A DNA stretch of 64,000 nt from positions 16,822,430-16,886,429 of the forward strand of contig OY979720.1 of assembly GCA_963855995.1 (NCBI GenBank). The letters are read 5' to 3'. The notes below the pieces were generated by a model, which worked only from the letters and a program-made list of their open reading frames with translations, had not been told where the DNA came from and ran no database searches. This document shows, piece after piece, positions 8,506 to 47,232 of the stretch. Made by a program: the position numbers and the translations under genes. Positions within the stretch are counted from its first letter, which is position 1. Each line of letters starts with the position of its first letter. Source of the stretch: Muricea muricata. Taxonomy: Eukaryota; Cnidaria; Anthozoa; Malacalcyonacea; Plexauridae.

Positions 8506-8688
<183 letters not shown>

Positions 8689-8769
8689 ACCAACCCAGCA
8701 AGTGAAGTCTTGTCAATCCAAGCCAGCCAAGCCATGTCAACCCAAGCCAAGCCAAGCCAGCTGAGCCTC

Positions 8770-24760: not shown

Positions 24761-26107
24761 AGCTCTTAAGGTGTTTTACACACCCCCCAAACTAGAGAAA
24801 GAAATCATTTGTGTAATCGATTCCTCAGTACTTTTACAAAAAGAGATAATTGGTCTCATATCAAATTCAATACTAGTGGTATCATTATAGGCCTAAAAAG
24901 CAAGTATACCAACACTATTGTTAACATTTACAGTAATTAGATGGTAAATCGTGATACTTGTATTAGTGGTTTTCATGCCACAGCATGGCAGTCCTGCTGG
25001 CAGGAATGGATCTAGAGTGTTTATTGAGGGGGTGCATATTCATATATTCAGGTTTTGCCTGACTATTTTCTTTCAGTATAAATTTCCAGGTGACTATTGA
25101 CTTTCCTATATTCTGATTGGTCAAGATTTGCTCTCTCTGAAGTGATAGTCACTGGCCAGTGACTATACATACATAGCCTTTTGCTTTTTTAATTCAACAA
25201 CAAATTCGAAGTGAATTTTTATAAAGTCGTGTTGACTATTATTTGTAAACACCTGGATATTTATACTAAAACAATTAGTCACCTCAGACTCCGTGATTAC
25301 AAGCCCATATTCACTTCAACTTCGGCTTAGTGAATATAGTCTTGTAATTACCTCACATTTGGCGACTACTTGTTAATTATAATCAACCTTATTTTGAACA
25401 ACAGAAATTAGTTGGGTATAACCTAAATAACATTCTAGATCTATCCCTGGCTGGTGGACAACAAAGTACCTAAGCTTGTCAGAGCAAATAATTTATGGAT
25501 TCCTCTTTGTTTTAAGGTGCTTGTTCACCAGTGATTGACAATGTAAATGCCACCAGTAGCAGCATATCAATATGAATTCAATAGGTTTTCCTTTTCATAG
25601 CTGACCATATCAACATAACTTGCAAGCTGGTACCATACAACACACACAACCTACATAAGGGGCCATCGGATTATATTACATAGATTTTGTCCTGCATCAC
25701 AGACTTGTTTTGCATTGAGGGTTAAATCATTTCACCATTATAGTACTGAAATTGTCTATAATTTGCTATTGGATTAAAAGCAATTGCCATACTTACTTAC
25801 TCGTAGACTTATTTGTAGTACTTGTTTTATATTGGAGGTTTGTGGATCTTTCCAATCATATTGTCTGACTCCTGAATCACACTGTGTAATTTTTAGTGGT
25901 TCACGATAAGGTAGGGCAGGGGGGGGATTATAAGCTTAGACTAACAAAATGGAATAGCCTGCATCATATATTTTCTTACTTATAGATAAACATTATATTA
26001 GGGGGGGGGGGGGAGTATAAAGCAGTATGAAATCTATTTGTCAACGGTTAGCAATGTTGGTTCAAGATGTTCAACAATAACAATACAAACACCAAAGTGA
26101 CCAAATG
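24761..26107. repeat. Intergenic with dispersed repeat 25070-25380 and G-runs
   Basis: Bases 25070-25380 share 'attggtcaagatt', 'gaagtgatagtcactggcca' and 'tagtcacct' with 51160-51260 in opposite orientation. Poly-G tracts occur at about 25919-25927 and 26001-26013. Nothing coding was recognised. This is also the 3' flank of the C18orf21-like gene, where no polyadenylation signal stood out. Confidence 0.5.
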
Positions 26108-26731
26108 TCAAATATTAGCAAGGAAATTAATCAGGCTAGGAGATGATGTCTTTTGCTCAGATTCTAATTTCTCCTTGGCAAGAAGTTCTCTAAGTCGGCT
26201 TTTTGTTTTCTTTCTTTTTCCTGACGAGTGCTGCCCGTTGCAAGTTTTTCCCTGTTGTGGAGTGCTTTGACTGGTAACCGATGCCTTCTTTGATGATCTG
26301 GGTGTTTGGCCCAACAGGGCATTGTTATTTCTCAACGATGTGTCATTTTCCAAGAACACGCTTTTGATCTTGGCTGGCTTTCTGGTTGCCCCCACTTGTC
26401 TGGTCTTCCAGCCGCAAACATGACACAGAATTTGCAAAAAGTTGGATGATTTCGGCATAATGCCATAAGCTGGATTATTTTGGACATTGTGTTTCTTCCT
26501 TCTCCGGCATTTTCTTTTAGGTTTTATTCTGAAAGTGCAGTTTCTACCTGTGAATAAGCTACCACAATGCCCACAGACGTTTAAAGTCGATTGATAATTT
26601 TCTTCTGAATCCTTCATATTCGTTAGACGATCGTCGAAGTGTTTCACCATCATAATTCGTGATAGTTCAGGACATTTCTTGTGGTATTCCTTTGCTACTC
26701 CTTGCAAAAATTTAAGTTTTCTGGCAGCCAT
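26108..26731 (-). CDS. C18orf21-like protein, putative RNase MRP-specific subunit (RMP24)
   Basis: Single-exon frame of 207 aa from ATG at 26731 to the stop at 26108. An in-frame upstream ATG at 26821 adds 30 residues, but the inner start fits the human C18orf21 length (about 220 aa) and its N-terminus better. Features: an N-terminal helix (KLKFLQGVAKEYHKKCPELS), paired zinc-ribbon cysteines C53/C56 (VCGHC) and C103/C106 (LCHVCGWK), a basic stretch IKPKRKCRRRKKH between them, a Ser/Thr-rich linker, and a conserved tail (SRLRELLAKEK...LINFLANI). C18orf21 has been described as an RNase MRP-specific protein related to the Rpp21/Snm1 zinc-ribbon fold; I infer the same role here. Its start faces the 20-kb satellite, 190 bp away. 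Confidence 0.75.
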   Translation of the reverse strand: MAARKLKFLQGVAKEYHKKCPELSRIMMVKHFDDRLTNMKDSEENYQSTLNVCGHCGSLFTGRNCTFRIKPKRKCRRRKKHNVQNNPAYGIMPKSSNFLQILCHVCGWKTRQVGATRKPAKIKSVFLENDTSLRNNNALLGQTPRSSKKASVTSQSTPQQGKTCNGQHSSGKRKKTKSRLRELLAKEKLESEQKTSSPSLINFLANI

Positions 26732-26924
26732 AACATGCAATCTTCCAAAAATGCGAAGGCTTTCTTTGTCAGTGCCTGCGAACAGGCATGAGTAGATATT
26801 GGTGAATTCTGGTAGGAACACAAGGACCTGTGTTAAAATTTATAGTTTGTAATTCTATTTTTTGTTACTGTGTTTAAAGAACAGAACGAAGTATTTACGT
26901 ATTCTATTGGTATCATCTTGTTAA

Positions 26925-29045
26925 TTTGAACCTAACTTTCTGATAATAATTCATACCAAATCCTGCTCATATCAGTGCACCACTCTTTTATGACTTTAAC
27001 CAATCTTTTACCTTTTACTAATTTCAAGCTGTCTTTAGCGAGATTTAAACCTAACTTACTGATAGCTCATACCAAAGCCTGTACCACTGCACCACACGTT
27101 CTTGCTTGGACATGTAAGGTAAATTATTAACTTTAATCAATTTTTCTCTTAATTTGAAGCCAAAAATTTTGCAACTGTCTTCACGGAGATTTGAACTTAA
27201 CTTGTTGGTAATTCCCACCAAAGCCTCTACCACTGCACCACACGTTCTTGCTAGAACATGTAAGGTAAATTAATAACTTTAACCAATTTTTCTCTTAATT
27301 TGAAGCCAAAAATTTCACAACTGTCTTCACCGAGATTTGAACCTAACTTACTGGCAATTCACACCAAAGCCTGTACCACTGCACCACACGTTCTTGCTTG
27401 AACATTTATGGTAAATTATTAACTTTAACCAATTTTTCTCTTAATTTGAAGCCAAATATTTAACAACTTCTTCACCGAAATTTGAGCCTTACTTACTGGT
27501 AATTCCCGCTAAAGCCTGTACCACTGCACCACACGTTCTTGCTTGAACATTTCTGGTAAATTAGTAACTTTAAGCAATTTTTCTCTTAATTTGAAGCTAA
27601 AGATTTCACAACTGTCTTCACCGAGATTTGAACCTAGCTTACTGGTAATACACACTAAAGCAAGTACCACTGCACCACACGTTCTTGCTTGAACATATAT
27701 GGTAAATTAATAATTTTAACCAATTTTTCTCTTTATTTGAAGCCGAAAATTTCGCAATGTTCTTCACGGAGATTTGAACCTAACTTACTGGTAATTCTCA
27801 CCAAAGCCTGTACTACTGCACCACACGTTCTTGCTTGAACATATATGGTAAATTAATAATTTTAACCAATTTTTCTCTTTATTTGAAGCCGAAAATTTCG
27901 CAATGTTCTTCACGGAGATTTGAACCTAACTTACTGGTAATTCTCACCAAAGCCTGTACCACTGCACCACACGTTCTTGCTTGAACATATATGGTAAATT
28001 AATAATTTTAACCAATTTTTCTCTTTATTTGAAGCCGAAAATTTCGCAATGTTCTTCACGGAGATTTGAACCTAACTTACTGGTAATTCTCACCAAAGCC
28101 TGTACCACTGCACCACACGTTCTTGCTTGAACATATATGGTAAGTTAATAATTTTAACCAATTTTTCTCTTTATTTGAAGCCAAAAATTTCGCAATTGTC
28201 TTCACCGAGATTTGAACCTAACTTACTGGTAATTCACACCAAAGCCTGTACCACTGCACCGCACGTTCTTGCTTGAACATGTGTGGTAAATTATTAACTT
28301 TAACCAATTTTTCTCTTAATTTGAAGCCAAATATTTAACAACTTCTTCACCGAAATTTGAGCCTTACTTACTGGTAATTCCCGTTAAAGCCTGTACCACT
28401 GCACCACACGTTCTTGCTTGAACATTTCTGGTAAATTAGTAACTTTAAGCAATTTTTCTCTTAATTTGAAGCTAAAGATTTCGCAACTGTCTTCACCGAG
28501 ATTTGAACCTAGCTTACTGGTAATAAACACTAAAGCAAGTACCACTGCACCACACGTTCTTGCTTGAACATATATGGTAAATTAATAATTTTAACCAATT
28601 TTTCTCTTTATTTGAAGCCGAAAATTTCGCAATGTTCTTCACGGAGATTTGAACCTAACTTACTGGTAATTCTCACCAAAGCCTGTACCACTGCACCACA
28701 CGTTCTTGCTTGAACATATATGGTAAATTAATAATTTTAACCAATTTTTCTCTTTATTTGAAGCCGAAATTTTCGCAATGTTCTTCACGGAGATTTGAAC
28801 CTAACTTGTTGGTAATTCTCACCAAAGCCTGTACCACTGCACCACACGTTCTTGCTTGAACATATATGGTAAGTTAATAATTTTAACCAATTTTTCTCTT
28901 TATTTGAAGCCAAAAATTTCACAACTGTCTTCACCGAGATTTGAACCTAACTTACTGGTAATTCCCACCAAAGCCTGTACCACTGCTCCACTCGTTCGTG
29001 CTTGAACATCAGAAGCAAATTATTGAGTTTGACCAAATTTTTCTT
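26925..29045 (-). repeat. tRNA-like satellite, left block (about 14 monomers, minus orientation)
   Basis: Direct tandem monomers of about 145-148 bp. The tRNA-like half reads on the minus strand; the plus strand shows 'gagatttgaacctaactta', 'accaaagcctgtaccactgc' and 'accacacgttcttgct'. The first monomers (26925-27110) are the most diverged. Several consecutive units (27700-28150) are nearly identical. The block begins 190 bp from the C18orf21-like ATG and ends at the orientation switch. Confidence 0.95.
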
Positions 29046-30116
29046 AATTTTAGAAAAATTGGTTACGTTTAATAATTTACCATGCATGTGAAAGCAAGAA
29101 CGTGTAGTGCTGTGGTGCACGCTTTAGTGTGATTTATGAAGAAGTTAGGTTTAAATCTCGGTGAAGACAGTTGTGAAATTTTTAGCTCCAAATTAAGAGA
29201 AAAATTGGTTAAAGTTAATAATTTACCATACATGTTCAAGCAAGAACATGTTGTGCAATGATACAAACTTTGGTGTGAATTGCCAACAAATTAGGTTCAA
29301 ATCTCGGTGAAAACAATTGTGAAATTTTTAGCTTCAAGTTAAGAGAAAAATTGGTTAAAGTTAATAATTTACCATACATGCTCAAGCAAGAACGTGTGGT
29401 GCAGTGGTACAGGCTTTGGTGTGAATCACCACCAAATTAGGTTCAAATCACGGTGAAGACAGTTGTGAAATCTTTAGCTTCAAATTAAAAGAAAAATTGG
29501 TTAAAGTTAATAATTTACCTCCCTTGTTCAAGCAAGAGCGAGTGGTGCAGTGGTACAGGCCTTGGTGTGAATTACCAACAAGTTAGTTTCAGATCTCGGT
29601 GAAGACAGTTGTGAAATTTTTAGCTTCAAGTTAAGAGAAAAATTGGTTAAAGTTAATAATTTACCATACAGGTTCAAGCAAGAGCGTGTGGTGCAGTAGT
29701 ACAGGCTTTTGTGTGAATTACCAACAAGTTAGGTTCAAATGTCGGTGAAAACAGTTGTGAAATGTTTGGCTTCAAATTAAGAGAAAAATTGGTTAAAGTT
29801 AATAATTTACCACCCATGTTCGTGCAAGAGCAAGTGGTGCAGTGGTCCAGGCCTTAGTGTGAACTACCAACAAGTTAGTTTCAGATCTCGGTGAAGACAG
29901 TTATGAAATTTTTAGCTTCAAGTTAAGAGAAAAATTGGTTAAAGTTAATAATTTACCATACAGGTTCAAGCAAGAACGTGTGGTGCAGTGGTACAGGCTT
30001 TGGTGTGAATTACCAACAAGTTAGGTTCAAATGTCGGTGAAAGCAGTTGTGAAATTTTTGGCTTCAAATTAAGAGAAAAATTGGTTAAAGTTAATAATTT
30101 ACCATACAGGTTCGAG

Positions 30117-30205
30117 CAAGAACGTGTGGTGCAGTGGTACAGGCTTTGGTGTGAATTACCAACAAGTTAGGTTCAAATCTCGGTGAAGACAGTTGTGAAA
30201 TTTTT
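30117..30205 (+). ncRNA. Representative predicted pol III unit of the satellite
   Basis: One intact example of the repeated tRNA-like unit. The A-box and B-box match TRGYNNARNNG and GWTCRANNC exactly, and their starts are 43 nt apart. Counting T8 as the first A-box base, the stem falls at 27-31/39-43 with U33 and the triplet GAA at 34-36, as in tRNA-Phe. The acceptor stem does not pair, the D- and T-stems pair only partly, and no CCA is present. It cannot be a working tRNA, but it resembles a tRNA-derived SINE head ending in a pol III terminator. Expression is unproven. Confidence 0.5.
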
Positions 30206-33200
30206 GGCTTCAAATTAAGAGAAAAATTGGTTAAAGTTATTAATTTACCTTACATGTTCTAGCAAGAACGTGTGGTGCAGTAGTACATGCCTTGCTGTGA
30301 ATTACCAACAAGTTAGATTCAAATCTCGGTGAAGACAATTGCGAAAATTTTGGGCTTTAAATTTTGAGAAAAATTGGTTAAAGTTAATAATTTACGTCGC
30401 ATATTCATGCAAGAACGTGTGGTGTAGTGGTACAGGCTTTGTTGTGAATTTCCAGTAAGTTAGGCTCAAAACTCGGCGAAGACAGCTGCGAAATTTTTGG
30501 CTCCAAATTAAGCGAAAAATTGGTTAAAGTTAATAATTTACCATAAATGGTCAAGCAAGAACGAGTGCTGCAGTGGTACAGGCTTTGTTGTGAATTACCA
30601 GCAAGTTAGGTTCAAATCTCGGTGAAAACAGTTGCGAAGTTTTTGGGCTTTAAATTTTGAGCAAAAATTGGTTATTTAAAGTTTATAATTTACCTTGCAT
30701 GTTCAAACAAGAACGTGTGATGAAGTGGTACAGGCTTTGGTGTGAATTACCAGCAAGTTAGGTTCAAATCTCGGTGAAGACAATTGTGAAATTTTTTGGC
30801 TCCAAATTAAGAGAAAAATTGGTTAAAGTTAATAATTTACCATACATGGTCAAGCAAGAACGAGTGCTGCAGTGGTACAGGCTTTGGTGTGAATTACCAG
30901 CAAGTTAGGTTCAAATCTCGGTGAAGACAGTTGCGAAATTTTTGGCTCCAAATTAAGAGAAAAATTGGTTAAAGTTAATAATTTACCATACATGGTCAAG
31001 CAAGAACGTGTGATGCAGTGGTACCAGCTTTGGTGTGAATTACCAGCAAGTTAGGCTCAAATCTCGGTGAAGACAGTTGTGAAATTTTTTGGCTCCAAAT
31101 TAAGAGAAAAATTGGTTAAAGTTAATAATTTACCATACATGGTCAAGCAAGAACGAGTGCTGCAGTGGTACAGGCTTTGGTGTGAATTACCAGCAAGTTA
31201 GGTTCAAATCTCCGTGAAGACAGTTGCAGAATTTTTGGCTCCAAATTAAGAGAAAAATTGGTTAAAGTTAATAATTTACCATACATGGTCAAGCAAGAAC
31301 GTGTGATGCAGTGGTACCGGCTTTGGTGTGAACTACCAGCAAGTTAGGTTCAAATCTCGGTGAAGACAATTGTGAAATTTTTAGCTTCAAGTTAAAAGAA
31401 AAATTGGTTAAAGTTAATAATTTACCATACAGGTTCAAGCAAGAACGTGTGGTGCAGTAGTACAGGCTTTGGTGTGAATTACCAACAAGTTAGGTTCAAA
31501 TGTCGGTGAAAACAGTTGTGAAATGTTTGGCTTCAAATTAAGAGAAAAATTGGTTAAAGTTAATAATTTACCACCCATGTTCATGCAAGAGCGAGTGGTG
31601 CAGTGGTCCAGGCCTTAGTGTGAATTACCAACAAGTTAGTTTCAGATCTCGGTGAAGACAGTTATGAAATTTTTAGCTTCAAGTTAAGAGAAAAATTGGT
31701 TAAAGTTAATAATTTACCATACAGGTTCGAGCAAGAACGTGTGGTGCAGTGGTACAGGCTTTGGTGTGAATTACCAACAAGTTAGGTTCAAATGTCGGTG
31801 AAAACAGTTGTGAAATTTTTGGCTTCAAATTAAGAGAAAAATTGGTTAAAGTTAATAATTTACCATACAGGTTCAAGCAAGAACGTGTGGTGCAGTGGTA
31901 CAGGCTTTGGTGTGAATTACCAACAAGTTAGGTTCAAATGTCGGTGAAAACAGTTGTGAAATTTTTGGCTTCAAATTAAGAGAAAAATTGGTTAAAGTTA
32001 ATAATTTACCATACAGGTTCGAGCAAGAACGTGTGGTGCAGTGGTACAGGCTTTGGTGTGAATTACCAACAAGTTAGGTTCAAATGTCGGTGAAAACAGT
32101 TGTGAAATTTTTGGCTTCAAATTAAGAGAAAAATTGGTTAAAGTTAATAATTTACCATTCGTGTTCAAGCAAGAACGTGTGGTGCAGTGGTACATGCCTT
32201 GCTGTGAATTACCAACAAGTTAGATTCAAATCTCGGTGAAGACAATTGCGAAAATTTTGGGCTTTAAATTTTGAGAAAAATTGGTTAAAGTTAATAATTT
32301 ACGTCGCATATTCATGCAAGAACGTGTGGTGTAGTGGTACAGGCTTTGTTGTGAATTTCCAGTAAGTTAGGCTCAAAACTCGGCGAAGACAGCTGCGAAA
32401 TTTTTTTGGCTTCAAATTAAGCGAAAAATTGGTTAAAGTTAATAATTTACCATACATGGTCAAGCAAGAACGAGTGCTGCAGTGGTACAGGCTTTGTTGT
32501 GAATTACCAGCAAGTTAGGTTCAAATCTCGGTGAAAACAGTTGCGAAGTTTTTGGGCTTTAAATTTTGAGCAAAAATTGGTTATTTAAAGTTTATAATTT
32601 ACCTTACATGTTCAAAGAAGAACGTGTGATGCAGTGGTACAGGCTTTGGTGTGAATTACTAGTAAGTTAGGTTCAAATCTCGGTGAAGACACTTGCGAAA
32701 TTTTTGGCTCGAAATTAAAAGAAAAATTGGTTAAAGTTAATAATTTACCATACATGGTCAAGCAAGAACGTGTGATGCAGTGGTACCAGCTTTGGTGTGA
32801 ATTACCAGCAAGTTAGGTTCAAATCTCGGTGAAGACAGTTGTGAAATTTTTTGGCTCCAAATTAAGAGAAAAATTGGTTAAAGTTAATAATTTACCATAC
32901 AGGTTCAAGCAAGAACGTGTGGTGCAGTAGTACAGGCTTTGGTGTGAATTACCAACAAGTTAGGTTCAAATGTCGGTGAAAACAGTTGTGAAATGTTTGG
33001 CTTCAAATTAAGAGAAAAATTGGTTAAAGTTAATAATTTACCACCCATGTTCATGCAAGAGCGAGTGGTGCAGTGGTCCAGGCCTTAGTGTGAATTACCA
33101 ACAAGTTAGTTTCAGATCTCGGTGAAGACAGTTATGAAATTTTTAGCTTCAAGTTAAGAGAAAAATTGGTTAAAGTTAATAATTTACCATACAGGTTCGA

Positions 33201-36200
33201 GCAAGAACGTGTGGTGCAGTGGTACAGGCTTTGGTGTGAATTACCAACAAGTTAGGTTCAAATGTCGGTGAAAACAGTTGTGAAATTTTTGGCTTCAAAT
33301 TAAGAGAAAAATTGGTTAAAGTTAATAATTTACCATTCGTGTTCAAGCAAGAACATGTGGTGCAGTGGTACATGCCTTGCTGTGAATTACCAACAAGTTA
33401 GATTCAAATCTCGGTGAAGACAATTGCGAAAATTTTGGGCTTTAAATTTTGAGAAAAATTGGTTAAAGTTAATAATTTACGTCGCATATTCATGCAAGAA
33501 CGTGTGGTGTAGTGGTACAGGCTTTGTTGTGAATTTCCAGTAAGTTAGGCTCAAAACTCGGCGAAGACAGCTGCGAAATTTTTTTGGCTTCAAATTAAGC
33601 GAAAAATTGGTTAAAGTTAATAATTTACCATACATGGTCAAGCAAGAACGTGTGATGCAGTGGTACCAGCTTTGGTGTGAATTACCAGCAAGTTAGGTTC
33701 AAATCTCGGTGAAGACAGTTGTGAAATTTTTTGGCTCCAAATTAAGAGAAAAATTGGTTAAAGTTAATAATTTACCATACAGGTTCAAGCAAGAACGTGT
33801 GGTGCAGTAGTACAGGCTTTGGTGTGAATTACCAACAAGTTAGGTTCAAATGTCGGTGAAAACAGTTGTGAAATGTTTGGCTTCAAATTAAGAGAAAAAT
33901 TGGTTAAAGTTAATAATTTACCACCCATGTTCATGCAAGAGCGAGTGGTGCAGTGGTCCAGGCCTTAGTGTGAATTACCAACAAGTTAGTTTCAGATCTC
34001 GGTGAAGACAGTTATGAAATTTTTAGCTTCAAGTTAAGAGAAAAATTGGTTAAAGTTAATAATTTACCATACAGGTTCAAGCAAGAGCGTGTGGTGCAGT
34101 AGTACAGGCTTTTGTGTGAATTACCAACAAGTTAGGTTCAAATGTCGGTGAAAACAGTTGTGAAATGTTTGGCTTCAAATTAAGAGAAAAATTGGTTAAA
34201 GTTAATAATTTACCACCCATGTTCGTGCAAGAGCGAGTGGTGCAGTGGTCCAGGCCTTAGTGTGAACTACCAACAAGTTAGTTTCAGATCTCGGTGAAGA
34301 CAGTTATGAAATTTTTAGCTTCAAGTTAAGAGAAAAATTGGTTAAAGTTAATAATTTACCATACAGGTTCAAGCTAGAACGTGTGGTGCAGTGGTACAGG
34401 CTTTGGTGTGAATTACCAACAAGTTAGGTTCAAATGTCGGTGAAAGCAGTTGTGAAATTTTTGGCTTCAAATTAAGAGAAAAATTGGTTAAAGTTAATAA
34501 TTTACCACACAGGTTCGAGCAAGAACGTGTGGTGCAGTGGTACAGGCTTTGGTGTGAATTACCAACAAGTTAGGTTCAAATCTCGGTGAAGACAGTTGTG
34601 AAATTTTTGGCTTCAAATTAAGAGAAAAATTGGTTAAAGTTATTAATTTACCTTACATGTTCTAGCAAGAACGTGTGGTGCAGTAGTACATGCCTTGCTG
34701 TGAATTACCAACAAGTTAGATTCAAATCTCGGTGAAGACAATTGCGAAAATTTTGGGCTTTAAATTTTGAGAAAAATTGGTTAAAGTTAATAATTTACGT
34801 CGCATATTCATGCAAGAACGTGTGGTGTAGTGGTACAGGCTTTGTTGTGAATTTCCAGTAAGTTAGGCTCAAAACTCGGCGAAGACAGCTGCGAAATTTT
34901 TGGCTCCAAATTAAGCGAAAAATTGGTTAAAGTTAATAATTTACCATAAATGGTCAAGCAAGAACGAGTGCTGCAGTGGTACAGGCTTTGTTGTGAATTA
35001 CCAGCAAGTTAGGTTCAAATCTCGGTGAAAACAGTTGCGAAGTTTTTGGGCTTTAAATTTTGAGCAAAAATTGGTTATTTAAAGTTTATAATTTACCTTG
35101 CATGTTCAAACAAGAACGTGTGATGAAGTGGTACAGGCTTTGGTGTGAATTACCAGCAAGTTAGGTTCAAATCTCGGTGAAGACAATTGTGAAATTTTTT
35201 GGCTCCAAATTAAGAGAAAAATTGGTTAAAGTTAATAATTTACCATACATGGTCAAGCAAGAACGTGTGATGCAGTGGTACCAGCTTTGGTGTGAATTAC
35301 CAGTAAGTTAGGCTCAAATCTCGGTGAAGACAGTTGTGAAATTTTTTGGCTCCAAATTAAGAGAAAAATTGGTTAAAGTTAATAATTTACCATACATGGT
35401 CAAGCAAGAACGAGTGCTGCAGTGGTACAGGCTTTGGTGTGAATTACCAGCAAGTTAGGTTCAAATCTCCGTGAAGACAGTTGCAGAATTTTTGGCTCCA
35501 AATTAAGAGAAAAATTGGTTAAAGTTAATAATTTACCATACATGGTCAAGCAAGAACGTGTGATGCAGTGGTACCGGCTTTGGTGTGAACTACCAGCAAG
35601 TTAGGTTCAAATCTCGGTGAAGACAGTTGTGAAATTTTTAGCTTCAAGTTAAAAGAAAAATTGGTTAAAGTTAATAATTTACCATACAGGTTCAAGCAAG
35701 AACGTGTGGTGCAGTAGTACAGGCTTTGGTGTGAATTACCAACAAGTTAGGTTCAAATGTCGGTGAAAACAGTTGTGAAATGTTTGGCTTCAAATTAAGA
35801 GAAAAATTGGTTAAAGTTAATAATTTACCACCCATGTTCATGCAAGAGCGAGTGGTGCAGTGGTCCAGGCCTTAGTGTGAATTACCAACAAGTTAGTTTC
35901 AGATCTCGGTGAAGACAGTTATGAAATTTTTAGCTTCAAGTTAAGAGAAAAATTGGTTAAAGTTAATAATTTACCATACAGGTTCAAGCAAGAACGTGTG
36001 GTGCAGTGGTACAGACTTTGGTGTGAATTACCAACAAGTTAGGTTCAAATGTCGGTGAAAACAGTTGTGAAATTTTTGGCTTCAAATCAAGAGAAAAATT
36101 GGTTAAAGTTAATAATTTACCATTCGCGTTCAAGCAAGAACGTGTGGTGCAGTGGTACATGCCTTGCTGTGAATTACCAACAAGTTAGATTCAAATCTCG

Positions 36201-38459
36201 GTGAAGACAATTGCGAAAATTTTGGGCTTTAAATTTTGAGAAAAATTGGTTAAAGTTAATAATTTACGTCGCATATTCATGCAAGAACGTGTGGTGTAGT
36301 GGTACAGGCTTTGTTGTGAATTTCCAGTAAGTTAGGCTCAAAACTCGGCGAAGACAGCTGCGAAATTTTTTTGGCTTCAAATTAAGCGAAAAATTGGTTA
36401 AAGTTAATAATTTACCATACATGGTCAAGCAAGAACGAGTGCTGCAGTGGTACAGGCTTTGTTGTGATATACCAGCAAGTTAGGTTCAAATCTCGGTGAA
36501 AACAGTTGCGAAGTTTTTGGGCTTTAAATTTTGAGCAAAAATTGGTTATTTAAAGTTTATAATTTACCTTCCATGTTCAAACAAGAACGTGTGCTGCAGT
36601 GGTACAGGCTTTGGTGTGAATTACTAGTAAGTTAGGCTCAAATCTCGGTGAAGACACTTGCGAAATTTTTGGCTCGAAATTAAAAGAAAAATTGGTTAAA
36701 GTTAATAATTTACCATACATGGTCAAGCAAGAACGTGTGATGCAGTGGTACCAGCTTTGGTGTGAATTACCAGCAAGTTAGGTTCAAATCTCGGTGAAGA
36801 CAGTTGTGAAATTTTTTGGCTCCAAATTAAGAGAAAAATTGGTTAAAGTTAATAATTTACCATACAGGTTCAAGCAAGAACGTGTGGTGCAGTAGTACAG
36901 GCTTTGGTGTGAATTACCAACAAGTTAGGTTCAAATGTCGGTGAAAACAGTTGTGAAATGTTTGGCTTCAAATTAAGAGAAAAATTGGTTAAAGTTAATA
37001 ATTTACCACCCATGTTCATGCAAGAGCGAGTGGTGCAGTGGTCCAGGCCTTAGTGTGAATTACCAACAAGTTAGTTTCAGATCTCGGTGAAGACAGTTAT
37101 GAAATTTTTAGCTTCAAGTTAAGAGAAAAATTGGTTAAAGTTAATAATTTACCATACAGGTTCGAGCAAGAACGTGTGGTGCAGTGGTACAGGCTTTGGT
37201 GTGAATTACCAACAAGTTAGGTTCAAATGTCGGTGAAAACAGTTGTGAAATTTTTGGCTTCAAATTAAGAGAAAAATTGGTTAAAGTTAATAATTTACCA
37301 TACAGGTTCAAGCAAGAACGTGTGGTGCAGTGGTACAGGCTTTGGTGTGAATTACCAACAAGTTAGGTTCAAATGTCGGTGAAAACAGTTGTGAAATTTT
37401 TGGCTTCAAATTAAGAGAAAAATTGGTTAAAGTTAATAATTTACCATACAGGTTCGAGCAAGAACGTGTGGTGCAGTGGTACAGGCTTTGGTGTGAATTA
37501 CCAACAAGTTAGGTTCAAATGTCGGTGAAAACAGTTGTGAAATTTTTGGCTTCAAATTAAGAGAAAAATTGGTTAAAGTTAATAATTTACCATTCGTGTT
37601 CAAGCAAGAACGTGTGGTGCAGTGGTACATGCCTTGCTGTGAATTACCAACAAGTTAGATTCAAATCTCGGTGAAGACAATTGCGAAAATTTTGGGCTTT
37701 AAATTTTGAGAAAAATTGGTTAAAGTTAATAATTTACGTCGCATATTCATGCAAGAACGTGTGGTGTAGTGGTACAGGCTTTGTTGTGAATTTCCAGTAA
37801 GTTAGGCTCAAAACTCGGCGAAGACAGCTGCGAAATTTTTTTGGCTTCAAATTAAGCGAAAAATTGGTTAAAGTTAATAATTTACCATACATGGTCAAGC
37901 AAGAACGAGTGCTGCAGTGGTACAGGCTTTGTTGTGAATTACCAGCAAGTTAGGTTCAAATCTCGGTGAAAACAGTTGCGAAGTTTTTGGGCTTTAAATT
38001 TTGAGCAAAAATTGGTTATTTAAAGTTTATAATTTACCTTACATGTTCAAAGAAGAACGTGTGATGCAGTGGTACAGGCTTTGGTGTGAATTACTAGTAA
38101 GTTAGGTTCAAATCTCGGTGAAGACACTTGCGAAATTTTTGGCTCGAAATTAAAAGAAAAATTGGTTAAAGTTAATAATTTACCATACATGGTCAAGCAA
38201 GAACGTGTGATGCAGTGGTACCAGCTTTGGTGTGAATTACCAGCAAGTTAGGTTCAAATCTCGGTGAAGACAGTTGTGAAATTTTTTGGCTCCAAATTAA
38301 GAGAAAAATTGGTTAAAGTTAATAATTTACCATACAGGTTCAAGCAAGAACGTGTGGTGCAGTAGTACAGGCTTTGGTGTGAATTACCAACAAGTTAGGT
38401 TCAAATGTCGGTGAAAACAGTTGTGAAATGTTTGGCTTCAAATTAAGAGAAAAATTGTT

Positions 38460-41400
38460 TAAAGTTAATAATTTACCATTTGTGTTCAAGCAAGAACGTG
38501 TGGTGCAGTGGTACATGCCTTGCTGTGAATTTCCAACAAGTTAGATTCAAATCTCGGTGAAGACAATTGCGAAAATTTTGGGCTTTAAATTTTGAGAAAA
38601 ATTGGTTAAAGTTAATAATTTACGTCGCAGGTTCATGCAAGAACGTGTGGTGTAGTGGTACAGGCTTTGTTGTGAATTTCCAGTAAGTTAGGCTCAAAAC
38701 TCGGCGAAGACAGCTGCGAAATTTTTTTGGCTTCAAATTAAGCGAAAAATTGGTTAAAGTTAATAATTTACCATACATGGTCAAGCAAGAACGAGTGCTG
38801 CAGTGGTACAGGCTTTGTTGTGAATTATCAGCAAGTTAGGTTCAAATCTCGGTGAAAACAGTTGCGAAGTTTTTGGGCTTTAAATTATGAGCAAAAATTG
38901 GTTATTTAAAGTTTATAATTTACCTTACATGTTCAAACAAGAACGTGTGATGCAGTGGTACAGGCTTTGGTGTGAATTACTAGTAAGTTAGGTTCAAATC
39001 TCGGTGAAGAGAGTTGCGAAATTTTTGGCTCCAAATTAAGAGAAAAATTAGTTAAAGTTAATAATTTACCATACATGGTCAAGCAAGGACGTGTGATGCA
39101 GTGGTACCAGCTTTGGTGTGAATTACCAGCAAGTTAGGTTCAAATCTCGGTGAAGACAGTTGTGAAATTTTTTGGCTCCAAATTAAGAGAAAAATTGGTT
39201 AAAGTTAATAATTTACCATACATGGTCAAGCAAGAACGAGTGCTGCAGTGGTACAGGCTTTGGTGTGAATTACCAGCAAGTTAGGTTCAAATCTCGGTGA
39301 AGACAGTTGCGAAATTTTTGGCTCCAAATTAAGAGAAAAATTGGTTAAAGTTAATAATTTACCATACATGGTCCAGCAAGCACGTGTGATGCAGTGGTAC
39401 CGGCTTTGGTGTGAACTACCAGCAAGTTAGGTTCAAATCTCGGTGAAGACAGTTGTGAAATTTTTGGCTCAAATTAAGAGAAAAATTGGTTAAAGTTAAT
39501 AATTTACCATACATGGTCAAGCAAGAACGAGTGCTGCAGTGGTACAGGCTTTGGTGTGAATTACCAGCAAGTTAGGTTCAAATCTCGGTGAAGACAGTTG
39601 TGAAATTTTTGGCTCAAATTAAGAGAAAAATTGGTTAAAGTTAATAATTTACCATACATGGTCAAGCAAGAACGAGTGCTGCAGTGGTACAGGCTTTGTT
39701 GTGAATTACCAGCAAGTTAGGTTCAAATCTCGGTGAAAACAGTTGCGAAGTTTTTGGGCTTTAAATTTTGAGCAAAAATTGGTTATTTAAAGTTTATAAT
39801 TTACCTTACATGTTCAAAGAAGAACGTGTGATGCAGTGGTACAGGCTTTGGTGTGAATTACTAGTAAGTTAGGTTCAAATCTCGGTGAAGACACTTGCGA
39901 AATTTTTGGCTCGAAATTAAAAGAAAAATTGGTTAAAGTTAATAATTTACCATACATGGTCAAGCAAGAACGTGTGATGCAGTGGTACCAGCTTTGGTGT
40001 GAATTACCAGCAAGTTAGGTTCAAATCTCGGTGAAGACAGTTGTGAAATTTTTTGGCTCCAAATTAAGAGAAAAATTGGTTAAAGTTAATAATTTACCAT
40101 ACAGGTTCAAGCAAGAACGTGTGGTGCAGTAGTACAGGCTTTGGTGTGAATTACCAACAAGTTAGGTTCAAATGTCGGTGAAAACAGTTGTGAAATGTTT
40201 GGCTTCAAATTAAGAGAAAAATTGGTTAAAGTTAATAATTTACCACCCATGTTCATGCAAGAGCGAGTGGTGCAGTGGTCCAGGCCTTAGTGTGAATTAC
40301 CAACAAGTTAGTTTCAGATCTCGGTGAAGACAGTTATGAAATTTTTAGCTTCAAGTTAAGAGAAAAATTGGTTAAAGTTAATAATTTACCATACAGGTTC
40401 GAGCAAGAACGTGTGGTGCAGTGGTACAGGCTTTGGTGTGAATTACCAACAAGTTAGGTTCAAATGTCGGTGAAAACAGTTGTGAAATTTTTGGCTTCAA
40501 ATTAAGAGAAAAATTGGTTAAAGTTAATAATTTACCATTCGTGTTCAAGCAAGAACATGTGGTGCAGTGGTACATGCCTTGCTGTGAATTACCAACAAGT
40601 TAGATTCAAATCTCGGTGAAGACAATTGCGAAAGTTTTGGGCTTTAAATTTTGAGAAAAATTGGTTAAAGTTAATAATTTACGTCGCATATTCATGCAAG
40701 AACGTGTGGTGTAGTGGTACAGGCTTTGTTGTGAATTTCCAGTAAGTTAGGCTCAAAACTCGGCGAAGACAGCTGCGAAATTTTTTTGGCTTCAAATTAA
40801 GCGAAAAATTGGTTAAAGTTAATAATTTACCATACATGGTCAAGCAAGAATGAGTGCTGCAGTGGTACAGGCTTTGTTGTGAATTACCAGCAAGTTAGGT
40901 TCAAATCTCGGTGAAAACAGTTGCGAAGTTTTTGGGCTTTAAATTTTGAGCAAAAATTGGTTATTTAAAGTTTATAATTTACCTTACATGTTCAAACAAG
41001 AACGTGTGATGCAGTGTTACAGGCTTTGGTGTGAATTACTAGTAAGTTAGGTTCAAATCTCGGTGAAGGCAGTTGCGAAATTTTTGGCTCCAAATTAAGA
41101 GAAAAATTGGTTAAAGTTAATAATTTACCATGCATGGTCTAGCAAGAACGTGTGATGCAGTGGTACCAGCTTTGGTGTGAATTACCAGCAAGTTAGGTTC
41201 AAATCTCGGTGAAGACAGTTGTGAAATTTTTTGGCTCCAAATTAAGAGAAAAATTGGTTAAAGTTAATAATTTACCATACATGGTCAAGCAAGAACGAGT
41301 GCTGCAGTGGTACAGGCTTTGGTGTGAATTACCAGCAAGTTAGGTTCAAATCTCGGTGAAGACAGTTGCGAAATTTTTGGCTCCAAATTAAGAGAAAAAT

Positions 41401-44400
41401 TGGTTAAAGTTAATAATTTACCATACATGGTCAAGCAAGAACGTGTGATGCAGTGGTACCGGCTTTGGTGTGAACTACCAGCAAGTTAGGTTCAAATCTC
41501 GGTGAAGACAGTTGTGAAAATTTTGGCTCCAAATTAAGAGAAAAATTGGTTAAAGTTAATAATTTACCATACATGGTCAAGCAAGAACGAGTGCTGCAGT
41601 GGTACAGGCTTTGGTGTGAATTACCAGCAAGTTAGGTTCAAATCTCGGTGAAGACAGTTGTGAAATTTTTGGCTTCAAATTAAGAGAAAAATTGTTTAAA
41701 GTTAATAATTTACCATTCGTGTTCAAGCAAGAACGTGTGGTGCAGTGGTACATGCCTTGCTGTGAATTACCAACAAGTTAGATTCAAATCTCGGTGAAGA
41801 CAATTGCGAAAATTTTGGGCTTTAAATTTTGAGAAAAATTGGTTAAAGTTAATAATTTACGTCGCAGGTTCATGCAAGAACGTGTGGTGTAGTGGTACAG
41901 GCTTTGTTGTGAATTTCCAGTAAGTTAGGCTCAAAACTCGGCGAAGACAGCTGCGAAATTTTTTTGGCTTCAAATTAAGCGAAAAATTGGTTAAAGTTAA
42001 TAATTTACCATACATGGTCAAGCAAGAACGAGTGCTGCAGTGGTACAGGCTTTGTTGTGAATTATCAGCAAGTTAGGTTCAAATCTCGGTGAAAACAGTT
42101 GCGAAGTTTTTGGGCTTTAAATTATGAGCAAAAATTGGTTATTTAAAGTTTATAATTTACCTTACATGTTCAAACAAGAACGTGTGATGCAGTGGTACAG
42201 GCTTTGGTGTGAATTACTAGTAAGTTAGGTTCAAATCTCGGTGAAGAGAGTTGCGAAATTTTTGGCTCCAAATTAAGAGAAAAATTAGTTAAAGTTAATA
42301 ATTTACCATACATGGTCAAGCAAGGACGTGTGATGCAGTGGTACCAGCTTTGGTGTGAATTACCAGCAAGTTAGGTTCAAATCTCGGTGAAGACAGTTGT
42401 GAAATTTTTTGGCTCCAAATTAAGAGAAAAATTGGTTAAAGTTAATAATTTACCATACATGGTCAAGCAAGAACGAGTGCTGCAGTGGTACAGGCTTTGG
42501 TGTGAATTACCAGCAAGTTAGGTTCAAATCTCGGTGAAGACAGTTGCGAAATTTTTGGCTCCAAATTAAGAGAAAAATTGGTTAAAGTTAATAATTTACC
42601 ATACATGGTCCAGCAAGCACGTGTGATGCAGTGGTACCGGCTTTGGTGTGAACTACCAGCAAGTTAGGTTCAAATCTCGGTGAAGACAGTTGTGAAATTT
42701 TTGGCTCAAATTAAGAGAAAAATTGGTTAAAGTTAATAATTTACCATACATGGTCAAGCAAGAACGAGTGCTGCAGTGGTACAGGCTTTGGTGTGAATTA
42801 CCAGCAAGTTAGGTTCAAATCTCGGTGAAGACAGTTGTGAAATTTTTGGCTCAAATTAAGAGAAAAATTGGTTAAAGTTAATAATTTACCATACATGGTC
42901 AAGCAAGAACGAGTGCTGCAGTGGTACAGGCTTTGTTGTGAATTACCAGCAAGTTAGGTTCAAATCTCGGTGAAAACAGTTGCGAAGTTTTTGGGCTTTA
43001 AATTTTGAGCAAAAATTGGTTATTTAAAGTTTATAATTTACCTTACATGTTCAAAGAAGAACGTGTGATGCAGTGGTACAGGCTTTGGTGTGAATTACTA
43101 GTAAGTTAGGTTCAAATCTCGGTGAAGACACTTGCGAAATTTTTGGCTCGAAATTAAAAGAAAAATTGGTTAAAGTTAATAATTTACCATACATGGTCAA
43201 GCAAGAACGTGTGATGCAGTGGTACCAGCTTTGGTGTGAATTACCAGCAAGTTAGGTTCAAATCTCGGTGAAGACAGTTGTGAAATTTTTTGGCTCCAAA
43301 TTAAGAGAAAAATTGGTTAAAGTTAATAATTTACCATACAGGTTCAAGCAAGAACGTGTGGTGCAGTAGTACAGGCTTTGGTGTGAATTACCAACAAGTT
43401 AGGTTCAAATGTCGGTGAAAACAGTTGTGAAATGTTTGGCTTCAAATTAAGAGAAAAATTGGTTAAAGTTAATAATTTACCACCCATGTTCATGCAAGAG
43501 CGAGTGGTGCAGTGGTCCAGGCCTTAGTGTGAATTACCAACAAGTTAGTTTCAGATCTCGGTGAAGACAGTTATGAAATTTTTAGCTTCAAGTTAAGAGA
43601 AAAATTGGTTAAAGTTAATAATTTACCATACAGGTTCGAGCAAGAACGTGTGGTGCAGTGGTACAGGCTTTGGTGTGAATTACCAACAAGTTAGGTTCAA
43701 ATGTCGGTGAAAACAGTTGTGAAATTTTTGGCTTCAAATTAAGAGAAAAATTGGTTAAAGTTAATAATTTACCATTCGTGTTCAAGCAAGAACATGTGGT
43801 GCAGTGGTACATGCCTTGCTGTGAATTACCAACAAGTTAGATTCAAATCTCGGTGAAGACAATTGCGAAAATTTTGGGCTTTAAATTTTGAGAAAAATTG
43901 GTTAAAGTTAATAATTTACGTCGCATATTCATGCAAGAACGTGTGGTGTAGTGGTACAGGCTTTGTTGTGAATTTCCAGTAAGTTAGGCTCAAAACTCGG
44001 CGAAGACAGCTGCGAAATTTTTTTGGCTTCAAATTAAGCGAAAAATTGGTTAAAGTTAATAATTTACCATACATGGTCAAGCAAGAATGAGTGCTGCAGT
44101 GGTACAGGCTTTGTTGTGAATTACCAGCAAGTTAGGTTCAAATCTCGGTGAAAACAGTTGCGAAGTTTTTGGGCTTTAAATTTTGAGCAAAAATTGGTTA
44201 TTTAAAGTTTATAATTTACCTTACATGTTCAAACAAGAACGTGTGATGCAGTGTTACAGGCTTTGGTGTGAATTACTAGTAAGTTAGGTTCAAATCTCGG
44301 TGAAGGCAGTTGCGAAATTTTTGGCTCCAAATTAAGAGAAAAATTGGTTAAAGTTAATAATTTACCATGCATGGTCTAGCAAGAACGTGTGATGCAGTGG

Positions 44401-46070
44401 TACCAGCTTTGGTGTGAATTACCAGCAAGTTAGGTTCAAATCTCGGTGAAGACAGTTGTGAAATTTTTTGGCTCCAAATTAAGAGAAAAATTGGTTAAAG
44501 TTAATAATTTACCATACATGGTCAAGCAAGAACGAGTGCTGCAGTGGTACAGGCTTTGGTGTGAATTACCAGCAAGTTAGGTTCAAATCTCGGTGAAGAC
44601 AGTTGCGAAATTTTTGGCTCCAAATTAAGAGAAAAATTGGTTAAAGTTAATAATTTACCATACATGGTCAAGCAAGAACGTGTGATGCAGTGGTACCGGC
44701 TTTGGTGTGAACTACCAGCAAGTTAGGTTCAAATCTCGGTGAAGACAGTTGTGAAAATTTTGGCTCCAAATTAAGAGAAAAATTGGTTAAAGTTAATAAT
44801 TTACCATACATGGTCAAGCAAGAACGAGTGCTGCAGTGGTACAGGCTTTGGTGTGAATTACCAGCAAGTTAGGTTCAAATCTCGGTGAAGACAGTTGTGA
44901 AATTTTTGGCTTCAAATTAAGAGAAAAATTGTTTAAAGTTAATAATTTACCATTCGTGTTCAAGCAAGAACGTGTGGTGCAGTGGTACATGCCTTGCTGT
45001 GAATTACCAACAAGTTAGATTCAAATCTCGGTGAAGACAATTGCGAAAATTTTGGGCTTTAAATTTTGAGAAAAATTGGTTAAAGTTAATAATTTACGTC
45101 GCAGGTTCATGCAAGAACGTGTGGTGTAGTGGTACAGGCTTTGTTGTGAATTTCCAGTAAGTTAGGCTCAAAACTCGGCGAAGACAGCTGCGAAATTTTT
45201 TTGGCTTCAAATTAAGCGAAAAATTGGTTAAAGTTAATAATTTACCATACATGGTCAAGCAAGAACGAGTGCTGCAGTGGTACAGGCTTTGTTGTGAATT
45301 ATCAGCAAGTTAGGTTCAAATCTCGGTGAAAACAGTTGCGAAGTTTTTGGGCTTTAAATTATGAGCAAAAATTGGTTATTTAAAGTTTATAATTTACCTT
45401 ACATGTTCAAACAAGAACGTGTGATGCAGTGGTACAGGCTTTGGTGTGAATTACTAGTAAGTTAGGTTCAAATCTCGGTGAAGAGAGTTGCGAAATTTTT
45501 GGCTCCAAATTAAGAGAAAAATTAGTTAAAGTTAATAATTTACCATACATGGTCAAGCAAGGACGTGTGATGCAGTGGTACCAGCTTTGGTGTGAATTAC
45601 CAGCAAGTTAGGTTCAAATCTCGGTGAAGACAGTTGTGAAATTTTTTGGCTCCAAATTAAGAGAAAAATTGGTTAAAGTTAATAATTTACCATACATGGT
45701 CAAGCAAGAACGAGTGCTGCAGTGGTACAGGCTTTGGTGTGAATTACCAGCAAGTTAGGTTCAAATCTCGGTGAAGACAGTTGCGAAATTTTTGGCTCCA
45801 AATTAAGAGAAAAATTGGTTAAAGTTAATAATTTACCATACATGGTCCAGCAAGCACGTGTGATGCAGTGGTACCGGCTTTGGTGTGAACTACCAGCAAG
45901 TTAGGTTCAAATCTCGGTGAAGACAGTTGTGAAATTTTTGGCTCAAATTAAGAGAAAAATTGGTTAAAGTTAATAATTTACCATACATGGTCAAGCAAGA
46001 ACGAGTGCTGCAGTGGTACAGGCTTTGGTGTGAATTACCAGCAAGTTAGGTTCAAATCTCGGTGAAGACA
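38460..46070 (+). repeat. 3,237-bp higher-order repeat within the satellite (about 2.4 copies)
   Basis: Marker variants recur at exactly 3,237-bp spacing: 'aaaaattgttt' ends at 38460, 41697 and 44934; 'caaggacgtgtg' occurs near 39083, 42320 and 45557. Twenty-two monomers make one unit (147.1 bp each). Copies look almost identical by eye. The third is cut near 46,070, where older monomers resume. Confidence 0.9.
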
Positions 46071-47015
46071 GTTGCGAAATTTTTGGGCTTCAAATTTTGA
46101 GCAAAAATTCATTAAAATTAATAATTTACCTTACATGTTCAAGCAAGAACGTGTGGTGCAGTGGTACATGCTTTGGTGTGAATTAACTACCAGCAAGTTA
46201 GGTTCAAATCTCATTGAAAACAATTGCGAATTTTTTGGGCTTTAAATTTTGAGCAGAAATTGGTGAAAGTTAATAATTTACCGTAAATGTTCAAGCAAGA
46301 ACGTCTCATGCAGCGGTACATGCTTTGGTGTGAATTACCAGCAAGTTAGGTTCAAATCTCGGTGAAAACAGTTGCGAAATTTTTGGCTTCAAATTAAGAG
46401 AAAAATTGGTTAAAGTTATTAATTTACCATACATGTTCAAGCAGAAACGTGTGGTGCAGTGGTACATGCTTTGGTGTGAATTACCAGTAAGTTAGGTTTA
46501 AATCTTGGTGAAGACAGTTGCGAAATTTTTGGCTTCAAATTAAGAGAAAATTGGTTAAAGTTATTAATTTACCTTACATGTTCAAGTAAGAAAGTCTGGT
46601 GCAGTGGTACATGCTTTGGTGTGAATTACCAGCAAGTTTGGTTCAAATCTCGGTGAAGACTGTTGCGAAATTTTTGGGCTTTAAATTTTGAGCAAAAATT
46701 GCTTGAAGTTAATAATTTACCATACATGTTCAAGCAAGAACGTGTGGTGCAGTGGTACATGCTTTGGTGTGAATTACCAGCAAGTTAGGTTCAAATCTCG
46801 GTGAAAACAGTTGTGAAATTTTTGGGCTTTAGATTTTGAGTAAAAATTGGTTGAAGTTAATAATTTACCTTACAAGTGTTCAAGCAAGAACGTGTGGTGC
46901 AGTGATACAGGTTTTTGTGTGAATTGCCAGTAAGTTACTGGTTCAAAACTCCGTGAAGACAGTTGCGAATTTTTTTTTTGGCTTTAAATTAAGAGAAAAA
47001 TTGGTTAAAGTCAAT

Positions 47016-47232
47016 AATTTCTTCTGATGCTCAAGCATGAAAAAGTGGATGCAGAATCGAAGCCCAAAGCGTGTACCAATACACCATTCGTAAAAAAAAA
47101 GAGAAAAACGAAAAAAAAGCTATGAAGTAAAAATAACGAGGCCGTTGATCTCATAAATGTTACTGGATAGCGGACAAGAACGAAGGACGAAGGTAAACAA
47201 GAAAGACTGAGAACTAATCTTAGGAAAACAAC
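47016..47232 (+). promoter_or_regulatory. GMPS 5' flank and leader, abutting satellite remnant
   Basis: Bases 47030-47090 look like a degenerate half monomer in opposite orientation ('cccaaagcgtgtaccaatac'). Only about 140 bp separate this from the GMPS ATG, so the core promoter must lie here or within the satellite edge. No TATA box in a convincing position. Confidence 0.4.

What the first reader, a model, noticed from the sequence alone, without database searches (positions are those of the whole stretch)
26925..47015. 20-kb satellite whose every monomer is a tRNA-like RNA polymerase III unit
The 147-bp monomer combines a consensus A-box, a B-box at tRNA spacing (43 nt), a tRNA-like anticodon stem-loop and a T5-7 terminator about 21 nt past the B-box. 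About 135 such units lie in tandem. Tandem amplification of a tRNA-derived unit to this scale between two housekeeping genes is unusual. If transcribed it would be a large source of roughly 90-nt RNAs; if not, the internal promoters may still recruit TFIIIC, which can act as an insulator.
Basis: partly seen in the sequence, partly recalled or inferred. Interest (0 to 1): 0.9.

Follow-up and report, generated by a model that had tools for sequence, protein, structure and literature searches.

The report
tRNA-like satellite family in octocoral
A 20-kb stretch of about 136 tandem copies of a tRNA-derived unit, probably from an octocoral, is one array of a genome-wide repeat family whose small-RNA promoter is conserved between arrays but largely broken in this one.

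Summary
The array is real: 136 monomers of about 146 bp (window 26924-47048), with A box, B box (43-nt spacing) and T-run in the consensus. "Every monomer" is wrong: 14 of 136 copies keep all 15 core box positions, 10 of 136 with T>=4 too, and here the boxes drift as fast as the rest (7.6% vs 8.1%). The first 14 copies are inverted.

The window's genome (453 Mb, probably octocoral) holds at least 17 further loci of the same unit that I read, plus seven seen in hit lists. Between 16 array consensuses the picture reverses: core sites change 0.47 times against 1.93 elsewhere (shift rank 1 of 146), and the most conserved 11-mer lies on the B box. TTTT is kept in 14 of 15 consensuses. Within arrays, core sites drift less in 13 of 16; the window is an exception. 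No conserved RNA fold was found. In the 14 loci seen with both orientations the units point outward; several centres are telomere-like tracts.

Best reading: a tRNA-derived (tentatively Gln-like) Pol III-unit satellite, spread as DNA, selected on its promoter, decaying in this window. Transcription is untested. Kin: OAX, PolIII/TAN, Rana/polIII.

The parts
26924..29036 (-). left arm: 14 full tRNA-like monomers plus a degraded outer copy, units on the minus strand
29036..29060 (.). AT-rich, imperfectly palindromic junction where the orientation of the units flips (divergent)
29060..47048 (+). right arm: 122 full monomers plus a partial terminal one, units on the plus strand, mixture of 11 recurrent monomer types (at one clustering level)
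30127..30137 (+). A box of one fully intact copy (example)
30170..30180 (+). B box of the same intact copy, 43 nt downstream of the A box
30201..30205 (+). T5 run (candidate Pol III terminator) of the same copy
   Evidence: read directly
47064..47086 (-). isolated minus-strand A-box-like fragment at the right outer end, next to an A-rich stretch
26108..26731 (-). flanking single-exon gene, C18orf21-like, Rpr2/Rpp21 domain; ATG at 26731, about 190 bp from the array
47233..55323 (+). flanking GMP synthase gene: ATG at 47233 (my reading), ORF 54973-55323 holds a GMP synthase exon; full extent not modelled

Best explanation
The array is one locus of a genome-wide satellite family whose ~146-bp monomer descends from a tRNA gene (tRNA-Gln-like, tentative) and is laid out as a Pol III unit: upstream AT block, A box, B box, TTTT run. 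Shown: consensuses of different arrays, and copies within most arrays tested, keep the two boxes (and nearly all consensuses the T-run) better than other sites, while no conserved RNA fold is seen. Inferred from that: selection acts on the promoter, not on a tRNA structure; TFIIIC binds and Pol III makes roughly 90-nt RNAs from the intact arrays. Shown: the block between units is shared by the 16 array consensuses compared, and some arrays share unique flanks; inferred: the family spreads as multi-copy DNA (segmental or inverted duplication, perhaps circles), not by retroposition of single terminated transcripts. In this window the promoter constraint has lapsed: copies are mostly promoter-damaged and mixed by unequal exchange, so it is most likely a weak or silent relic between two housekeeping genes.
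For: Family: 216 matches of a 301-bp probe in the window's own genome, listed rows on C3, C4, C5, C6, C7, C10, C12, C15 at 71-91% identity; more. Unit length 144-156 bp kept. Between 16 array consensuses (some related): 15 core sites 0.47 changes per site vs 1.93, shift rank 1 of 146, random P 6e-5. Within arrays: core below non-core in 13 of 15 (P 0.003), 13 of 16 after adding C3e (P 0.011), 9 of 11 with one array per related group (P 0.042). TTTT in 14 of 15 array consensuses. No covarying fold: covariation term +0.36, 1 of 13 predicted pairs with a change on both sides. DNA-level spread: L019 carries a copy of the C18orf21 region and L018 of the GMPS 5' end. Decay here: 14 of 136 intact. 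tRNA-Gln: 42 of 56 aligned positions identical between the window consensus and the genome's own tRNA-Gln gene.
Against: No RNA, TFIIIC or Pol III data exist here. Four of 16 array consensuses carry core lesions (L019, L024, L030, L032; for L024 the majority of its aligned copies does not). Arrays C6b (0 of 134 intact) and C3e (0 of 39) are promoter-broken yet large, so the boxes are not needed for array growth. Over all 15 arrays the combined shift rank is only 0.068; 0.007 is reached after leaving out the window and its duplicate, a choice made after seeing the data; A box alone 0.10-0.27, B box alone 0.02-0.08. An upstream block of unknown role is nearly as conserved as the B box. Arrays are related, so tests are not fully independent. 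Own tRNA-Ser scores higher than tRNA-Gln for 4 of 15 consensuses.
Confidence: 0.6

Rival explanations
1. Ordinary satellite with a fossil tRNA motif. The boxes look conserved between arrays only because the arrays are relatives; nothing binds or transcribes them, and the array is neutral DNA growing by unequal exchange.
For: In the window, boxes drift like the rest; C6b and C3e arrays are promoter-broken yet large; a mixture of recurrent monomer types is what unequal exchange gives.
Against: Shared ancestry alone should spare all sites alike, but core sites change 4 times less between arrays and less within 13 of 16 arrays.
Confidence: 0.2
2. A SINE that landed at many places and then tandemly duplicated at each, as in squamate sSats.
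For: tRNA-derived head with A and B boxes; sSats show that SINE units can tandemise (PMC10702118, part 1 of 5 and passages seen).
Against: The 16 array consensuses share the block between the T-run and the next unit, which a transcript ended at the T-run would not carry. No target-site duplication was seen at the window's flanks: longest exact direct match 9 bp in about 200 bp on each side. A LINE-like tail was not looked for in any library.
Confidence: 0.1
3. TFIIIC-binding boundary (ETC-like) without transcription: the arrays act as insulators between genes, here between C18orf21-like and GMPS.
For: The most conserved 11-mer between arrays lies on the B box; the array separates two divergent genes whose ATGs lie about 190 bp from it.
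Against: In the window only 74 of 136 copies keep the B-box core. The T-run is conserved too, which a pure boundary does not need. Whether other arrays border genes was not tested systematically (two other flanks read).
Confidence: 0.12
4. Central repeats of a non-autonomous Helentron-like element (HINE), which carries satellite-length arrays beside a microsatellite.
For: On C3 a left module, a (CCCTAA)n tract, the array and a right module recur as dispersed copies, a layout like that described for Cg_HINE (PMC7492417, passages seen).
Against: The right module has no common end among the 5 copies aligned: they run on together for different distances. 27 of 35 and 62 of 64 module matches lie on one contig, more like segmental duplication. 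The window's flanks share with L032 only a 123-bp repeat.
Confidence: 0.07

Closest known systems
PolIII/TAN of the newt Cynops, OAX (satellite I) of Xenopus, Rana/polIII (as summarised in PMC10702118, part 1 of 5 and passages seen)
   Same: tandem repeats whose monomer holds a tRNA-like sequence; PolIII/TAN is capable of in vitro transcription
   Different: amphibian, monomers ~360 (PolIII/TAN) and ~250 nt (Rana/polIII), OAX unit called too long for a proper satellite; PolIII/TAN from tRNA-Glu (title of its paper in the reference list); here probably a cnidarian, 146 bp, tentatively Gln-like, many divergent arrays in one genome and a measured promoter constraint
SINE-derived satellites (sSat1-3) of squamates (PMC10702118)
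   Same: tandem units from a tRNA-related Pol III element, a few to hundreds per locus
   Different: sSat units are portions of known SINEs (the snake Squam3 unit spans 67 nt with box B); here both boxes are in the unit and no parent SINE is known to me
PcH-Sat of Patella (PMC11121367, passages read)
   Same: invertebrate satellite linked to a tRNA-type SINE
   Different: its authors say that the SINE segment in PcH-Sat lacks boxes A and B
Macro-dyad satellites of Tribolium madens (PMC13081366, passages read)
   Same: arrays made predominantly of two inverted subarrays
   Different: no Pol III unit mentioned in the passages seen; multi-megabase (peri)centromeric fields; here dispersed arrays, outward-pointing units, telomere-like tracts at several centres
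Cg_HINE central repeats of Crassostrea (PMC7492417, passages read)
   Same: satellite-length arrays next to a microsatellite, dispersed
   Different: element ends not found here; arrays also occur outside such modules

Membership tests
tRNA-like Pol III tandem satellites (OAX, PolIII/TAN, Rana/polIII type) | head-to-tail tandem array of one unit | tested here: met
tRNA-like Pol III tandem satellites (OAX, PolIII/TAN, Rana/polIII type) | tRNA-like segment with A and B boxes in the unit | tested here: met
   window consensus; 12 of 16 array consensuses without core lesion; not met by 122 of 136 single copies of the window
tRNA-like Pol III tandem satellites (OAX, PolIII/TAN, Rana/polIII type) | transcription by Pol III | not testable with these tools
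   no RNA data
functional tRNA gene array | cloverleaf recognised by tRNA finders | tested here: not met
   ARAGORN 0; Rfam 0; no tRNA match in a 361-base stretch at E<=10
SINE | dispersed solitary copies with target-site duplications and a LINE-derived or simple tail | tested here: inconclusive
   no flanking duplication seen at the window; genome-wide single copies not resolved (the search tool scores only best candidates); tail not tested
HINE / non-autonomous Helentron | defined ends with subterminal inverted repeats and 3' stem-loop | tested here: inconclusive
   right module without common end in 5 aligned copies; inverted repeats at ends not searched
TFIIIC boundary element (ETC / tDNA insulator) | TFIIIC occupancy at the B box | not testable with these tools
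   only the motif is seen; 74 of 136 window copies keep the B core
macro-dyad satellite | array split into two inverted subarrays | tested here: met
   11 of 17 other-or-own loci plus window read as two-armed (11 incl. the window) and 3 more from hit strands, all divergent; 7 read loci show one orientation only, some of them cut off by the stretch fetched

The most novel reading that the evidence does not exclude
In a non-bilaterian animal, a whole-genome network of satellite arrays is a Pol III gene system: units point outward from a shared, often telomere-like centre, the promoter (not the RNA fold) is the selected part, intact arrays give abundant ~90-nt RNAs or dense TFIIIC platforms, and arrays that lose the promoter, like the window's, C3e and C6b, keep growing as silent relics.
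Probability: 0.22. Interest if true: 0.8.

Novelty: new variant of a known kind. Interest (0 to 1): 0.55.

Why it matters
The tRNA-like Pol III satellites named in the review I read are amphibian, and whether their promoter matters to them is open as far as I know. Here one genome offers many arrays, some promoter-intact and some promoter-dead, which makes the question testable: do intact arrays make RNA or bind TFIIIC, and does loss of the promoter change how an array evolves? The constant outward orientation of the units, around telomere-like centres in several loci, is a second, unexplained regularity.

Tried and rejected
tRNA finders and Rfam on the array gave nothing useful (one search gave three weak matches to lncRNA regions, E 3-5). 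A 19-mer of the unit matched 9 viral contigs that lack the A-box segment, judged chance; a 24-base pattern gave 0 in viral and 0 in genome contigs. Idea that every amplified type of the window was selected to be promoter-dead: 11 of 11 recurrent right-arm types carry a lesion, but random column sets give P 0.048 and shifts 0.075, and the result fades at looser clustering or with all types; also long arrays with dozens of units passing a strict A..B pattern exist (C6 0.395-0.417 Mb, C5 5.430-5.457 Mb), so it was dropped. Idea that arrays always sit at gene starts: true for the window, perhaps for L034, not seen in L022; not pursued. HINE membership: no common end. One search compared the satellite with tRNA-Gln on the wrong strand and is void; repeated correctly. 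One search was a script error, repeated. One search used 145 instead of 146 model columns; core columns are unaffected. Rows dropped: one search left out L021, L028, L031 (same arrays as L020, L027, L030) and had no TRF consensus for L023 and L025; searches left out copies under 125 aligned columns (691 copies kept of 766 hits, counting only arrays with at least 8 such copies), so C5b (L023), C10 (L026) and C10b (L025) are missing.
Full report
1. What is in the window. TRF reports a 146-bp period over 27029-29050 and 29052-47020. I extracted 136 monomers by their A-box segment: 14 on the minus strand left of about 29050 and 122 on the plus strand right of it. Profile hits extend the array to 26924-47048 (15 minus and 123 plus hits). 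73 of 136 are distinct; mean identity to the consensus is 92%.

2. Are all copies Pol III units? I scored 15 positions that tRNA A and B boxes hold nearly constant (T8 R9 G10 Y11 A14 R15 G18 G19; G53 T54 T55 C56 R57 A58 C61; the list is recalled knowledge of tRNA genes). A intact 60 of 136, B 74 of 136, both 14 of 136, T>=4 119 of 136, all three 10 of 136; 90 copies have one core lesion and 32 have two. One lesion need not abolish function, so these counts are strict. Five of the ten fully intact copies lie among the 14 left-arm copies and five among the 122 right-arm copies. Core sites differ from the consensus in 7.6% of cells against 8.1% over all sites, shift rank 0.51; in the profile alignment of 135 copies the figures are 7.7% and 6.5%. 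Parsimony counts on a tree of the 73 distinct copies give 1.94 changes per core site (16 sites in that call) against 2.30 overall, P 0.26; the two whole boxes (22 sites) give 1.68, P 0.07. So this array shows no clear protection of its boxes. All 11 recurrent right-arm types carry at least one lesion; the excess over random columns is marginal (P 0.048; shifts 0.075) and depends on clustering.

3. The tRNA fold. The anticodon-like stem pairs in 91% of cells of the distinct copies, but its variable pairs mostly break; T stem 72% (a slid control reaches 73%), D stem 56%, acceptor 25%. ARAGORN and Rfam find no tRNA. Across 11 array consensuses RNAalifold gives -4.4 kcal/mol with an unfavourable covariation term and 1 of 13 pairs with a change on both sides.

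4. A genome-wide family. The window lies at C5:16822430-16886429 of a 453-Mb, 74-contig genome. The neighbour protein at 26108-26731 has as its only named relative in the list a Dendronephthya gigantea protein (54%; two unnamed ENA proteins reach 99% and 92%), so I take the animal to be an octocoral (inference). A 301-bp probe has 216 matches there; listed rows are 71-91% identical. I fetched 20 stretches (L018-L037), which are 17 distinct loci (L020/L021, L027/L028 and L030/L031 are pairs); tandem units of 144-156 bp were found in 18 of the 20 stretches (not in L023 and L025 at the settings used), and 766 profile hits in all 20 and the window. Further searches and patterns showed arrays or hits at C3 5.58 and 39.14, C4 0.74, C6 0.40-0.45, C7 13.90, C8 0.75 and 0.90 Mb; of these I read only part of C3 5.58 (L070). 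The two patterns had 434 and 228 exact matches, their reversed controls 0. Counts are lower bounds because the tool scores only best candidates and lists are cut.

5. Conservation between and within arrays. Among 16 array consensuses (some related) the 15 core sites change 0.47 times per site against 1.93 elsewhere; no other circular shift of the site set does as well (rank 1 of 146), random sets P 6e-5. The most conserved 11-mer starts one base into the B box, the B box itself is second, an AT-rich block 25-46 nt upstream of the A box follows, and the TTTT run is also conserved. Four of 16 consensuses carry core lesions (L019, L024, L030, L032). Within arrays (730 copies in 16 arrays) core sites differ in 5.2% of cells and others in 7.9%; core is lower in 13 of 16 arrays (Wilcoxon P 0.011) and in 9 of 11 when one array per related group is kept (P 0.042). 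Exceptions: the window, C3a (L019, its partial duplicate) and C3e (L070). Copies with an intact core: 245 of 691 in 15 arrays and 0 of 39 in C3e; C6b 0 of 134, C15 63 of 86, C12a 61 of 109. Scaled per array and combined over 15 arrays, the shift rank is 0.068; without the window and C3a it is 0.007, a choice made after seeing the data. Separately the A box is not significant (0.10-0.27) and the B box borderline (0.02-0.08).

6. Architecture. Eleven loci including the window contain both orientations and all have minus units on the left and plus units on the right; three more show the same in the strands of listed hits (C6 0.40-0.45, C7 13.90, C3 39.14). After merging related loci (window, L018, L019; L020, L022) that is 11 of 11 groups. 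Details against perfection: a minus A-box fragment lies beyond the right end of the window's array, and in L019 the plus arm is a 47-bp fragment. Telomere-like (CCCTAA/CCCTAG) tracts of three or more units occur at the centre of L018, L024 and L026 and at the 5' end of L032, L036 and L037, and nowhere else in the 324,920 bases of this genome held at that point, overlaps included; the genome has 26,741 matches of a four-unit pattern, the listed ones forming a tract at 2.5-3.1 kb of contig C1, so such tracts are not rare in the genome as a whole. The centre in the window has none.

7. How it spreads. L019 (C3) carries a copy of the window's C18orf21 side (within 25534-26923, 85-90%) and L018 (C5 5.46 Mb) a copy of the GMPS 5' end (47060-47256, 84%); L021 and L022 share flanks; on C3 a left module, tract, array and right module recur (64 and 35 matches, 62 and 27 of them on C3). 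So multi-copy DNA moves. The block between the T-run and the next unit is shared by the 16 consensuses, which single terminated transcripts would not carry; this argues against retroposition as the route. I infer segmental and inverted duplication; the step that makes the divergent arms is unexplained.

8. Parent tRNA. Against 14 recalled human tRNA genes, tRNA-Gln scores best for 12 of 15 consensuses, ties once, and loses to Glu twice. Against four of the genome's own genes (L071 Gln, Ser and SeC; L038 Lys) Gln is best for 10 of 15, tied for 1 and below Ser for 4. Window consensus vs own tRNA-Gln: 42 of 56 aligned positions identical; 0 of 400 shuffles score as high. Tentative, since not all tRNAs were compared.

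9. Literature. PMC10702118 (part 1 of 5: abstract, background, first results; plus passages) lists the amphibian tRNA-like tandem families and describes squamate sSats; PMC11121367, PMC13081366, PMC7492417, PMC2872659 and PMC10886601 were seen as passages, PMC3744447 as abstract and outline. Among the titles and abstract starts listed by eight answered searches (at most 20 each) I saw no paper on a tRNA-like satellite in a cnidarian; the library is open-access only, so this is weak evidence of absence.

10. Verdict. Real array; tRNA-derived Pol III anatomy in the founder unit; promoter sites conserved in the family; constraint lapsed in this array. New variant of the tRNA-like satellite kind; function unproven.

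Noticed in passing
L038, L060, L062, L064, L066 (G000 C1:68.26-68.74 Mb): Tandem array of tRNA-Lys(UUU) genes, 346-bp unit in the one locus tested; 9 tRNA calls per 3 kb in each of 5 loci scanned, a few with a damaged anticodon. If continuous over the span it would hold over a thousand copies (extrapolation).
   Followed up: partly
L071 and G000 C1:58.30-58.39, 56.145-56.153, 69.015-69.027 Mb: tRNA-Gln genes recur at roughly 2-3-kb steps, with three tRNA-Ser and one SeC call beside the Gln gene in L071: clustered tRNA-gene repeats.
   Followed up: no
L019 1-1365 and L018 6085-6281: Partial duplicates of the window's C18orf21 region on C3 and of the GMPS 5' end at C5 5.46 Mb, each beside an array.
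   Followed up: partly
L032, L036, L037 flanks; contig C3: Left and right modules around the array recur, 62 of 64 and 27 of 35 matches on contig C3; the right module looks to me like a 5' exon with a splice donor.
   Followed up: partly
L018 1697-1821, L024 1303-1671, L026 1563-2090, L036 953-1408: Telomere-like CCCTAA/CCCTAG tracts at array centres or inner ends.
   Followed up: partly
monomer positions 1-22 of the profile (upstream block TTGGTTAAAGTCAATAATTTAC): Block upstream of the A box nearly as conserved as the B box between arrays, and the slowest stretch in the window's own array; role unknown; its position would suit an upstream Pol III element.
   Followed up: partly
L070 (G000 C3:5.58-5.67 Mb and beyond): The longest array seen in the pattern list: in the 6 kb read, monomers mostly carry either a B-box or an A-box lesion in a 296-bp double unit, 0 of 39 intact.
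   Followed up: partly
window 8575-8692 and 11220-11654: A (GCCA)n microsatellite and a five-copy 85-bp tandem repeat.
   Followed up: no
window 6875-7207 (-) and 62825-63184 (+): Exon with a UPF0004 match (CDKAL1-like by recall), and an ORF that looks OPA1-like by recall (no Pfam match).
   Followed up: no
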